Source of the DNA: a virus
Direction: 5' to 3' (one strand)
IMG/VR virus record: IMGVR_UViG_3300042934_000300
Span: 1-20,243 of that record
Length of the DNA: 20,243 nucleotides
Positions 10,267 through 12,684 of this stretch are shown piece by piece (position 1 is the first letter of the stretch; every line of letters begins with the position of its first letter). The notes beneath the pieces were generated by a model that worked only from the letters and a program-made list of their open reading frames with translations, was not told the DNA's origin and ran no database searches. Both the position numbers and the translations under genes were made by a program.

Positions 10267-10656
10267 TTACCTCTTTTCAGAAAGTAATTTAAAAAACAAT
10301 CTCCTCTTCTCGTAAAACTGTCGTCTACCACATGGCACATTCATGTATTCATACGTAATTCCAAGGGTAACATTTTTTACGATGTACTGATAAATATATG
10401 GATCAGCTTCAATAGCTGTCTGCTCTATCAGCTCATTGTCTGCTCTCAACTTATTTATTTGCATGGCTTTGTTTGCTGTCTGATCTCCAGTTTCGTTCCC
10501 TTTTGGCATACCATCTTGGCACACTTCTGATAATCCATATAGGCTTCTAGCTTCATCTTCTCGGCTTTGGTATCTCTTGCAAAAGTAAAACAGTTCCCGG
10601 TACAAATCCGTTTCAATTTCATATTTATGTAAGCTCAAGTCTCTTTTATTCGGCAC
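10267..10656 (-). CDS. Putative phage late-gene transcription regulator
   Basis: 129 residues, GTG start at 10656 with AAGGACGGTGA upstream. The protein begins MPNKRDLSLHKYEIETDLYRELFYFC. It ends with ELIEQTAIEADPYIYQYIVKNVTLGITYEYMNVPCGRRQFYEKRRLFFKLLSEKR; this ending, with a helix-turn-helix-like 'GITYEYMNVPCGRRQFYEKRR' segment, is shared by many Clostridia phage proteins encoded just before the terminase genes. Those positions are held by ArpU/RinA-type late activators in other Gram-positive phages, and sigma-like activity has been suggested for such proteins. Activity here is inferred from position and the HTH-like segment. Confidence 0.65.
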   Translation of the reverse strand: MPNKRDLSLHKYEIETDLYRELFYFCKRYQSREDEARSLYGLSEVCQDGMPKGNETGDQTANKAMQINKLRADNELIEQTAIEADPYIYQYIVKNVTLGITYEYMNVPCGRRQFYEKRRLFFKLLSEKR

Positions 10657-10660
10657 CCTA

Positions 10661-10885
10661 TCACCGTCCTTTTATCTGTAAATAATGACTGTATCCACAA
10701 GCATATTTTGTCTTACCTTTTACGCTAACCTTATAGACATAATCAGATCTAAGCATCGCACTAGTAAAATAAACGTCCTTTCCACACACGTTGCATACTT
10801 CATGATTTACATCCTTGCCATGAGACCTAAGCTCCGATGGACTTAACTTTGTACTTTGTCCTTCTCCTGTCCAAGCCCAGTTGTC
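10661..10885 (-). CDS. C-terminal zinc-binding domain reached by +1 frameshift from the HTH gene
   Basis: This 74-residue open stretch starts DNWAWTG and contains CNVCGKDVYFTSAML and then YACGYSHY, a C-x2-C...C-x3-H treble-clef-like zinc site typical of small phage proteins. The frame is open further upstream, but the first codons after the HTH gene's ribosome-like AAGGAG include no ATG, GTG or TTG. The first in-frame GTG falls inside the CxxC motif and would destroy it. The stretch directly continues the upstream HTH protein if the ribosome shifts +1 at CCC-TGA-C. The fusion would be about 276 residues. A simple indel or an unusual start codon is the alternative. The next gene begins 4 bases after its stop. 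Confidence 0.65.
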   Translation of the reverse strand, partial: DNWAWTGEGQSTKLSPSELRSHGKDVNHEVCNVCGKDVYFTSAMLRSDYVYKVSVKGKTKYACGYSHYLQIKGR

Positions 10886-10901
10886 AGGGACGCTCCTTTT
10901 T
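10883..10901 (-). promoter_or_regulatory. Candidate programmed +1 frameshift site (prfB-like)
   Basis: Minus strand reads AAA AAG GAG CGT CCC TGA C. A Shine-Dalgarno-like AAGGAG is separated by exactly three bases (CGT) from the slippery codon CCC, followed by the stop TGA and then C. The same geometry (AGGGGG, three bases, CUU, UGA, C) drives +1 shifting in the bacterial release-factor-2 gene. CCC followed by TGA is a context where a peptidyl-tRNA can slip +1 (CCC to CCT). Confidence 0.65.
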
Positions 10902-11492
10902 GGTTTTAGCTTCAACCTTTGAATCCAGAAACCCATCGTTTTTTGTCTTTTTCCTAGCAAGGTGATTCAAGTAAATAAAATTGTTTACTGCCGACTTTGA
11001 TACTCCAAAATAATCAGCTATATCGGTCTGAGATTTACCTTCATCTTGGTACATTCTCCGGACATCCTCAATGTTCAGTGTCGGCTTGTCCTCAATCTTC
11101 TTGGCTTCCTCCTGTGGGATCTCGGTTAGCTTCTCCTCGACCGGATCAGTATCCTTCTTTGCTGACTGTTCCCTCTCCTGTATTAGTTGCAATGTTTCCT
11201 GATAGGTTGGAAATGAGGTTTCCTGCTTTCGGATCCCAAGAAGCTTCTCTAGCTCTTCGGTTTTCTCATTTCTTAACATAATCAGATTGGCTTTTATTAC
11301 GCTTGATATATCATCCATCTTGGATTTGTCTAAAATATTTATTAGATATGTATACATACCACAGTGTAAAACAGAGATTACTCCATCTTGAGCTGCATCG
11401 ATGGTATCCTCAACATTTTTAAGTTCAGAAGATATGGTTCTTAATTTACCAGCTCTTTCATTTGCCTGCTCTAATAATTCCTTACTGTTCAT
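10884..11492 (-). CDS. Phage HTH regulatory protein (zero-frame product)
   Basis: 202 residues from the second of two adjacent ATG codons (11492), 7 bases after AAGGAGG; the first ATG at 11495 is only 4 bases away. The N-terminal half is helical, possibly a coiled coil (ELLEQANERAGKLRTISSELKNVEDTID). Around residues 141-177 there is a clear helix-turn-helix: NIEDVRRMYQDEGKSQTDIA, then DYFGVSKSAVNNFIYLNHL. It then becomes strongly basic and stops at TGA 10884. The stop sits in a prfB-like +1 shift site, so this may be the short form of a protein whose long form carries a zinc domain. It lies directly before the putative late regulator. Confidence 0.75.
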   Translation of the reverse strand: MNSKELLEQANERAGKLRTISSELKNVEDTIDAAQDGVISVLHCGMYTYLINILDKSKMDDISSVIKANLIMLRNEKTEELEKLLGIRKQETSFPTYQETLQLIQEREQSAKKDTDPVEEKLTEIPQEEAKKIEDKPTLNIEDVRRMYQDEGKSQTDIADYFGVSKSAVNNFIYLNHLARKKTKNDGFLDSKVEAKTKKERP

Positions 11493-11656
11493 CATCTTTC
11501 CTCCTTATTATCATGCTCCGACATCTCATTCGGAGAAACTAATGCACTCTTTACAACCTCAAATCCTGCCGTCGCGACCATACTGTCCAGATCATCATGC
11601 AGGCCTTCGATCATACAGATATCTTCATCGATATCAAATGTATATATTAATTTCAT
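11492..11656 (-). CDS. Small acidic phage protein of unknown function
   Basis: 54 residues from ATG 11656 (MKLIYTFDIDEDICMIEGL), with GGAG nine bases upstream; the longer frame to 11710 lacks a ribosome site. The sequence is acidic, with DLDSMVATAGFEVVKSALVSPNEMSEHD, and no recognised domain. Its stop overlaps the ATGATG start region of the HTH gene, so the two are coupled. It is the first minus-strand gene after the plus-strand cassette, so it needs a promoter in 11657-11769 or antisense read-through. Confidence 0.6.
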   Translation of the reverse strand: MKLIYTFDIDEDICMIEGLHDDLDSMVATAGFEVVKSALVSPNEMSEHDNKEER

Positions 11657-11745: not shown

Positions 11746-11769
11746 AATTCTCAAAGGAGCTTGAACATT

Positions 11770-12051
11770 ATGCCATTCTTAAAACCCGACCACAGTCCTA
11801 TCATTCGCCATCCCCAAGGCCATCCAGTAGCTGTAATAGCAGCATTTAATACTATCGGAGATCTCGTCCCGAGGTATTTTTGCGTTGAAGATGATAACAG
11901 CGAGATCTTTAAATTTAAAGTAGATACTATTAAGGCTATTAAGGAAAAGCATATGGTTAAGACATTTTATTGTACCTATTTTGCTTACGGGTACCGGAAT
12001 GACATAGTGTTATGCTTTGATGTGATTAATACTAAGTGGGTTATAGGTTAA
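11770..12051 (+). CDS. Small conserved-looking protein of unknown function on the opposite strand
   Basis: 93 residues, ATG at 11770 with AAAGGAGC nine bases upstream. It begins MPFLKPDHSPIIRHPQGHPV and continues VAVIAAFNTIGDLVPRYFCVEDD, KFKVDTIKAIKEKH, TFYCTYFAYGYRNDIVLCFDV and ends TKWVIG. The pattern is a small all-beta protein with no signal peptide. The strong ribosome site and well-formed frame argue that it is real. It is the first gene of a plus-strand pair set against a long minus-strand operon, as expected of an acquired lysogeny-expressed cassette. I cannot name a family. Confidence 0.7.
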   Translation: MPFLKPDHSPIIRHPQGHPVAVIAAFNTIGDLVPRYFCVEDDNSEIFKFKVDTIKAIKEKHMVKTFYCTYFAYGYRNDIVLCFDVINTKWVIG

Positions 12052-12240
12052 TAGTTTACTTTTAGTACTTTGTTTATTCGACAAACATTTACATTTTTTT
12101 ATATATTTGTATATTTCTTACAATCATATTTGGTATATATTTACTTGTATAATGCTGTAAAATTATGTATTATTTTGTTGTAACGTAGTCATCAATCATA
12201 TGCTCTTTTATAAGAGTCAAAAAGAAAGGTGGTAATTACA
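12052..12240 (+). promoter_or_regulatory. Leader of the secreted-protein gene with candidate -10 and small hairpin
   Basis: 189 very AT-rich bases without a gene. A TATAAT hexamer at 12148-12153 (in ACTTGTATAATGC) is a good -10 box; TTGGTA upstream is too close (12 bases) to be an ideal -35. CTCTT-TTAT-AAGAG (12203-12216) forms a hairpin just before the AAAGGTGG ribosome site, which could tune translation. Confidence 0.4.
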
Positions 12241-12684
12241 ATGAGTAAAATGTTAAAAAGAATTGCAGTACTTGTTTTTCTCGTAACACTAGTAAGTGCT
12301 CCATCTACCGCACTAGCTGCTTCTCAAGCGGTTTGTGTAGCCGATTACGGCTATTATAAGTCTTTTGAGTATCAACCATCACCTCTTGAAATACGTCCTG
12401 GCTTTTCAGCAAACTTATCAAATAATATATTTGATGGACTATTCGTAACCGCTGAAAATACTCGTTTACACGTAGCTTGCAACACCTCATTTAATGGTCA
12501 GCTTAGATATCGCATATATAGAACTACTCCAACTTTTAGTCTTGTAGTAGAAGGAATAGCTGATAACGGTTCATTCTATGCAGAAACTCCCGTATTTGCT
12601 CAATCTGGAACTTATATAATAGAGGTTACAAATATCGGAGTTCCTTTTATGTACATAGAAAATTATTCCGTTTGGTATGATTAA
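12241..12684 (+). CDS. Secreted protein of unknown function (possible lysogenic-conversion gene)
   Basis: 147 residues, ATG at 12241 with AAAGGTGG eight bases upstream. A classical signal peptide is visible: basic MSKMLKRIA, hydrophobic VLVFLVTLVSA, then cleavage probably after ALA near residue 27. The mature part of about 120 residues is beta-rich (SFEYQPSPLEIRPGF, LRYRIYRTTPTFSLVVEG, GTYIIEVTNIGVPFMYIENY) and resembles a single beta-sandwich domain without recognisable catalytic residues. It has two cysteines (VCVADYG, VACNTSF) that could pair. It has its own terminator and probably its own promoter and runs against the phage operon. Such genes are typical morons expressed from a prophage. 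Confidence 0.75.
   Translation: MSKMLKRIAVLVFLVTLVSAPSTALAASQAVCVADYGYYKSFEYQPSPLEIRPGFSANLSNNIFDGLFVTAENTRLHVACNTSFNGQLRYRIYRTTPTFSLVVEGIADNGSFYAETPVFAQSGTYIIEVTNIGVPFMYIENYSVWYD

What the first reader, a model, noticed from the sequence alone, without database searches (positions are those of the whole stretch)
10661..11492. prfB-like programmed +1 frameshift joining an HTH protein to a zinc domain
Seen: the HTH gene stops at TGA in the context AAGGAG-CGT-CCC-TGA-C. The +1 frame continues as an intact 74-residue domain with a C-x2-C...C-x3-H zinc pattern, and that frame has no usable start codon: no ATG/GTG/TTG occurs before the CxxC motif. Known: the E. coli prfB shift uses a Shine-Dalgarno-like sequence exactly three bases before the slippery codon, then UGA C; the spacing here is identical. 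Inference: the phage makes a short HTH protein and a long HTH-zinc fusion in a fixed or regulated ratio. Termination efficiency at UGA (RF2 level) could tune it, just upstream of the late regulator.
Basis: partly seen in the sequence, partly recalled or inferred. Interest (0 to 1): 0.75.

Follow-up and report, generated by a model that had tools for sequence, protein, structure and literature searches.

The report
prfB-like frameshift in phage regulator gene
A family of phages of Clostridia-like bacteria appears to end a DNA-binding protein gene with a conserved ribosome-slip signal, so that some ribosomes shift one base and add a zinc-binding domain: the kind of signal bacteria use in their release-factor-2 gene, here in a viral regulator.

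Summary
The junction AAGGAG-CGT-CCC-TGA-C and the intact +1-frame zinc domain are real. The claim of no start codon is only half right: none lies between slip site and CxxC, but TTG 10960, ATG 10936 and TTG 10915 lie upstream in that frame, without a good Shine-Dalgarno (SD) sequence.

Relatives decide it. Six lineages found by protein homology, not by motif, share (A/G)AGGAG-(C/T)GT-CCC-T(G/A)A at the end of the HTH ORF. Their HTH tails are otherwise hardly alignable, yet the zinc domain always follows in +1. This is the most conserved 4-codon stretch of the fused gene (94% nucleotide identity, mean 51%), with fixed GAG and CCC codons. A motif-only scan gave six more HTH members; in three the zinc ORF has no ATG/GTG/TTG before its first Cys. 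The zinc frame is under purifying selection. So an SD-stimulated +1 programmed frameshift (CCC to CCU) is strongly supported by comparison, though untested by experiment.

Not supported: RF2-specific tuning (TAA replaces TGA in three lineages; the base after the stop varies). Seven relatives lack all or part of the site. Regulation of late genes is inferred from position next to a late-regulator-like gene.

The parts
10884..11495 (-). zero-frame ORF: 203-aa protein (coiled-coil hairpin, helix-turn-helix, disordered tail ending KERP), stop TGA
10968..11072 (-). helix-turn-helix segment (residues 142-176)
   Evidence: weak Pfam HTH/Sigma70_r4/MarR matches; three confident helices in the model
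10893..10898 (-). SD-like stimulator AAGGAG, 3 nt upstream of the slip codon
   Evidence: sequence; AAGGAG or AGGGAG in all 12 lineages
10886..10889 (-). slip site CCC-T (Pro-tRNA moves from CCC to CCT)
   Evidence: invariant in 12 lineages; precedents for CCC_UGA in PMC5009743
10884..10886 (-). zero-frame stop TGA in the A site when the slip would occur
   Evidence: TGA in 9, TAA in 3 of 12 lineages
10661..10885 (-). +1-frame extension: 74 codons encoding a CxxC...Cx3H zinc-ribbon-like domain, then stop
   Evidence: purifying selection in relatives
10934..10936 (-). ATG in the +1 frame inside the HTH gene: rival internal start for the zinc part, no good SD
10267..10656 (-). next gene, 129 aa, in the place where relatives carry a late transcriptional regulator
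   Evidence: phrog_11237 in the window; phrog_36 / DUF1492 / Sigma70_r4 in relatives

Best explanation
The HTH gene carries an SD-stimulated +1 programmed ribosomal frameshift site. Ribosomes reaching AAGGAG-CGT-CCC-TGA pair their anti-SD with AAGGAG while Pro-tRNA sits on CCC and the A site holds a stop codon. The short 3-nt spacing and slow termination favour a slip of Pro-tRNA from CCC to the overlapping CCU. Most ribosomes would stop and make a 203-aa HTH protein; a fraction would continue in +1 and make a 277-aa HTH-zinc fusion. Shown: sequence, frame relation, conservation and codon fixation, selection on the zinc frame, and absence of any start codon in some relatives. Inferred: that slipping occurs, its efficiency, and that the two products act differently in phage (probably late) transcription control.
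For: Six homology-found lineages (window, L026, L027, L034, L043, L044) share the site exactly at the HTH stop with Zn in +1. KERP is the most conserved 4-codon window at nucleotide level, 0.944 against mean 0.505 (sd 0.114); GAG and CCC are fixed while nearly all other conserved residues vary synonymously. CCC is 9% of Pro codons, and 12 of 120 large ORFs on the member contigs end CCC-stop, about the number of HTH members. The motif-only scan retrieved new HTH members (L053, L056, L063, L064, L068, L069), five of them with Zn in +1. L056, L063 and L069 have no ATG/GTG/TTG between the preceding in-frame stop (21-24 nt upstream) and the first Cys. Zn-frame dN is far below dS, e.g. L026/L027 0.20 against 1.30. 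L044 carries a second Zn paralogue as a free 57-aa ORF with its own ATG, in contrast to its frameshift-linked copy. Literature: 3-nt SD spacing for +1, and CCC_UGA shifting in Listeria phages and at E. coli pheL (PMC5009743); CCC and UUU are the next most slippery codons before a stop (PMC10885494).
Against: No experimental data. The window itself has an in-frame upstream ATG and two TTGs. L002, L022, L024, L028 and L041 keep Zn in +1 but lack the site; L042 and L045 keep GGAGCGTCCCT without an adjacent stop. How those make the Zn part is unexplained. L068 keeps the site but has lost the Zn domain. Motif-found members carry the site by selection and do not count as conservation evidence. Members are related, so codon fixation is not a set of independent events. 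No conserved 3' structure, though prfB needs none.
Confidence: 0.86

Rival explanations
1. Overlapping genes: the zinc protein is made separately from an internal start (ATG 10936 or a TTG) inside the HTH gene, perhaps by translational coupling; the AAGGAG is incidental.
For: ATG 10936 and two TTGs are in frame in the window. Several relatives have some upstream ATG. The Zn domain can stand alone (L039/L040 with a GTG after an SD; L047; second copy in L044). It is the likeliest mode for the members without the site.
Against: Starts have no good SD and are not at a conserved position. L056, L063 and L069 have none at all. It does not explain fixation of AAGGAG-YGT-CCC-TRA at exact spacing.
Confidence: 0.09
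2. The SD-like AAGGAG before the stop serves termination-reinitiation, retaining the ribosome to restart in the +1 frame just downstream.
For: SD sequences just before stops are common in coupled phage genes (PMC5009743).
Against: No ATG/GTG/TTG in the +1 frame between slip site and first Cys in the window and in most other members (L027, L043 and L064 are the exceptions); L044 has only about 5 codons there. CCC-T would not need to be fixed.
Confidence: 0.03
3. A simple indel: pseudogene or sequencing/assembly error that split one gene.
For: Single-base frame breaks are common in metagenome assemblies.
Against: The same +1 relation and the same 15-mer in many contigs from different samples; no in-frame fused relative found; Zn frame under purifying selection.
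Confidence: 0.01

Closest known systems
prfB (release factor 2) programmed +1 frameshift
   Same: SD-like hexamer exactly 3 nt before the P-site slip codon, pyrimidine-rich codon plus U, stop codon in the A site, +1 shift
   Different: Slip codon CCC_U not CUU_U; SD AAGGAG not AGGGGG; stop UGA or UAA with no conserved following C; late in the gene and adds a domain rather than restoring a broken ORF; gene is a phage HTH protein, so no RF2 autoregulation
Listeria phages PSA, A118, A500 tsh and PSA cps +1 frameshifts
   Same: Phage genes of Firmicutes; +1 at CCC_UGA (tsh) or CCC_UCC (cps); C-terminally extended second product; CCC a rare codon
   Different: Structural (tail, capsid) genes; described with a stop or pseudoknot stimulator, no prfB-type SD mentioned in the passages read here (PMC5009743)
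E. coli pheL CCC_UGA incidental +1 frameshift
   Same: CCC_UGA slipping at the end of an ORF, 15% in K-12 (PMC5009743)
   Different: Incidental, not conserved to make a fused domain
Lambda-type Q antiterminators (own knowledge, a lead only)
   Same: Zinc motif plus HTH in a late-control protein
   Different: No usable sequence relation shown: weak Phage_antitermQ/Q-like hits in only 2 of 12 members

Membership tests
prfB-type SD-stimulated +1 programmed frameshift | SD-like sequence 3 nt upstream of the slip codon | tested here: met
   AAGGAG or AGGGAG at exact spacing in 12 of 12 lineages, 6 of them not motif-selected
prfB-type SD-stimulated +1 programmed frameshift | CTTT (rarely TTTT) slip sequence | tested here: not met
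   CCCT in all; so prfB-like, not a prfB site
prfB-type SD-stimulated +1 programmed frameshift | UGA followed by C | tested here: not met
   window yes; relatives UGA or UAA followed by A/C/G/T
prfB-type SD-stimulated +1 programmed frameshift | downstream frame open, coding and conserved | tested here: met
   Zn domain in +1 in 11 of 12 lineages, lost in L068; dN below dS
prfB-type SD-stimulated +1 programmed frameshift | measured +1 product | not testable with these tools
   needs reporter or mass spectrometry
Listeria-phage CCC_UGA +1 sites | CCC followed by U of a stop as the slip site | tested here: met
Listeria-phage CCC_UGA +1 sites | structural gene (tsh or cps) | tested here: not met
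   HTH protein upstream of terS/terL; no structural match
Zinc-ribbon domains | two Cys/His pairs on beta hairpins | tested here: inconclusive
   C-x2-C and C-x3-(H/C) conserved; AlphaFold core pLDDT about 80-90 with beta hairpins; no significant PDB fold match

The most novel reading that the evidence does not exclude
A phage regulatory switch built on a prfB-like frameshift: the ratio of an HTH protein to its HTH-zinc form is set by ribosome slipping at a stop codon and so reports the state of host translation (release factors, Pro-tRNA), feeding into the late-gene programme; widespread in uncultured Clostridia phages and evolving with repeated loss of the site.
Probability: 0.3. Interest if true: 0.82.

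Novelty: new variant of a known kind. Interest (0 to 1): 0.66.

Why it matters
In the literature read here, SD-stimulated +1 frameshifting is described for prfB, and CCC_UGA slipping for phage structural genes. Here both are combined in one 15-nt signal, conserved across divergent phages in a DNA-binding protein gene. It offers a compact natural +1 cassette, a second independent system for testing SD spacing and stop-codon competition, and a candidate regulator with two alternative C-termini that standard annotation would miss or call two genes.

Tried and rejected
Homologues in the phages collection: none by tblastn for window HTH, window Zn, L027 HTH and Zn, L044 HTH or L069 HTH. Lachnospiraceae and Clostridia genome searches: only the Herbinix genome is convincing (L047 is a separate zinc protein with its own start); L046, L048 and L049 look like ribosomal protein L28 (own reading) and L020 is an archaeal chance match. 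Conserved 3' stem or pseudoknot: none (window z -2.05, the others between -1.98 and 0.11 with no shared structure). Transcriptional slippage: no long A run, and the A run is not conserved. Stop readthrough in frame 0: only about 18 codons in the window. Frameshift reading of the no-site members (AAA TAG T; TGT TAA T): no SD at 3 nt, poor re-pairing, so left open. tRNA-Pro genes seen in the Herbinix MAG: UGG and CGG, none GGG, but the MAG is incomplete. Zn-domain tree too short to place gain and loss firmly: the site needs 3 changes, e.g. one gain and two losses.

Full report
WHAT IS THERE. The window is a 20,243-base IMG/VR virus record; 9,520 bases of it match a Herbinix MAG contig at 99.99%. 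On the minus strand lie a 72-aa ORF, then the 203-aa HTH gene (11495-10884), then a +1-frame ORF ending at 10661, then a 129-aa gene (10656-10267), and further on terS and terL. The HTH gene ends AAA AAG GAG CGT CCC TGA C. In the +1 frame 74 codons follow with CNVC and CGYSH.

RELATIVES. Neither protein has a tblastn match in 50,697 phage records. Step-wise homology searches with the zinc domain and the HTH protein found L002, L022 (a second copy in the same Herbinix genome), L024, L026, L027, L028, then L034-L045. In every locus where an HTH gene of this family precedes the zinc domain, the zinc domain is in the +1 frame. Six distinct lineages (window, L026, L027, L034, L043, L044) end the HTH ORF with (A/G)AGGAG-(C/T)GT-CCC-T(G/A)A (AGGGAG in L026). 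These were not chosen by motif. Their HTH tails are hardly alignable, from ...LDSKVEAKTKKERP to ...GESGRERP and ...RQKQKKPADDKERP, yet the last 12-15 nt are nearly identical.

CONSERVATION MEASURED. In a codon alignment of the fused gene of these six, KERP is the top 4-codon window of 164: 0.944 nucleotide identity, mean 0.505, sd 0.114. Of 24 columns with an invariant amino acid, only GAG and CCC in the motif and one GAT elsewhere show no synonymous change. In member contigs CCC is 9% of Pro codons, CGT 13% of Arg codons and GAG 39% of Glu codons, and 12 of 120 large ORFs end CCC-stop, about as many as there are HTH members. The members are related, so this is not a product of independent probabilities.

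MOTIF SCAN. A scan of all viral contigs for AAGGAGCGTCCCTRA, blind to protein, gave 29 stretches. Twelve belong to this family, including new members L053, L056, L063, L064, L068 and L069; the others are mostly one recurrent unrelated sequence and strays with short +1 frames. L056, L063 and L069 have no ATG, GTG or TTG anywhere in the +1 frame between the previous in-frame stop (21-24 nt upstream of CCT) and the first Cys, so their zinc domain is reachable only by frameshift or a non-canonical start. In Clostridia genomes the same motif sits at background level, and the hits other than the Herbinix copy are strays. L068 has the site but the +1 frame is only 22 codons: the zinc domain has been lost.

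SELECTION. In the zinc frame dN is well below dS: L026/L027 0.20 against 1.30; L022/L024 0.05 against 0.48.

MECHANISM. A review (PMC5009743) gives 3 nt as the SD spacing for +1 stimulation, notes that CCC_UGA is used for +1 shifting in tail genes of Listeria phages PSA, A118 and A500 and slips at 15% at E. coli pheL, and that prfB-type shifting was also measured with UAG in place of UGA. PRFect (PMC10885494) cites CCC and UUU as the next most slippery codons before a stop. The site here combines these parts. Expected products are a 203-aa HTH protein and a 277-aa HTH-zinc fusion. The claim of RF2-specific tuning is not supported: L034, L056 and L064 use UAA, and the base after the stop is A, C, G or T. 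RF2 does read both UGA and UAA, so some RF2 effect is possible.

EXCEPTIONS. L022, L024 and L028 (TAG) and L002 (TAA) have no site; L041 keeps AAGGAG but not CCC; L042 and L045 keep GGAG-CGT-CCC-T with a sense codon next, recalling the PSA cps site ACA_CCC_(UCC). How the zinc part is made in these is open; weak internal starts exist in them. The zinc-domain tree is short and allows one gain and two losses. L039/L040 carry a distant zinc domain behind another gene, with GTG after GGGAGGA (read). L044 carries both the frameshift-linked copy and, about 130 nt further on, a free 57-aa paralogue with its own ATG: a natural contrast within one phage.

PROTEINS. The HTH protein models as a long-helix/beta-hairpin/long-helix N-terminus, a linker, an HTH (142-176) and a low-confidence tail that would tether the zinc domain. 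Family matches are weak HTH or sigma region 4. The zinc domain models as beta hairpins plus a C-terminal helix with no significant fold match. The next gene in relatives matches phrog_36 transcriptional regulators, DUF1492 or sigma region 4, so the frameshift gene lies directly upstream of a late-regulator-like gene; a role in late control is inference from place.

VERDICT. A real, conserved, SD-stimulated CCC-U +1 frameshift site is the best explanation (0.86). Its products, efficiency and regulatory meaning are untested.

Noticed in passing
L044:5291-5464: A second, freestanding zinc-domain ORF (57 aa, own ATG) about 130 nt after the frameshift-linked copy in the same phage.
   Followed up: partly
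L002:4448-5273; L022:873-1716; L024:4364-5204; L028:94-934; L041:278-1139: Relatives with HTH and zinc domain in +1 but no slip site (stops TAA/TAG); how the zinc part is expressed is unclear.
   Followed up: partly
L042:2418-3357; L045:4190-5129: Intermediate sites GGAGCGTCCC-TTG and GGAGCGTCCC-TCG with no stop next to CCC, recalling the PSA cps site.
   Followed up: partly
L068:2092-2863: HTH gene with an intact slip site but the zinc domain deleted; the +1 frame is only 22 codons.
   Followed up: partly
L034 and L036: Identical second half and slip site but different N-terminal part of the HTH protein: mosaic exchange inside the gene.
   Followed up: no
window 11761-12051 (+) and 12229-12684 (+): Two plus-strand ORFs, the second with a signal-peptide-like N-terminus, sit inside an otherwise minus-strand phage operon; they look like accessory (moron) genes.
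   Followed up: no
L050, L058, L060-L062, L066, L067, L070, L072, L073, L077: A recurrent non-family sequence AGRCGCTTGAAGGAGCGTCCCTGACGGT in other viral contigs, in short reading frames.
   Followed up: no
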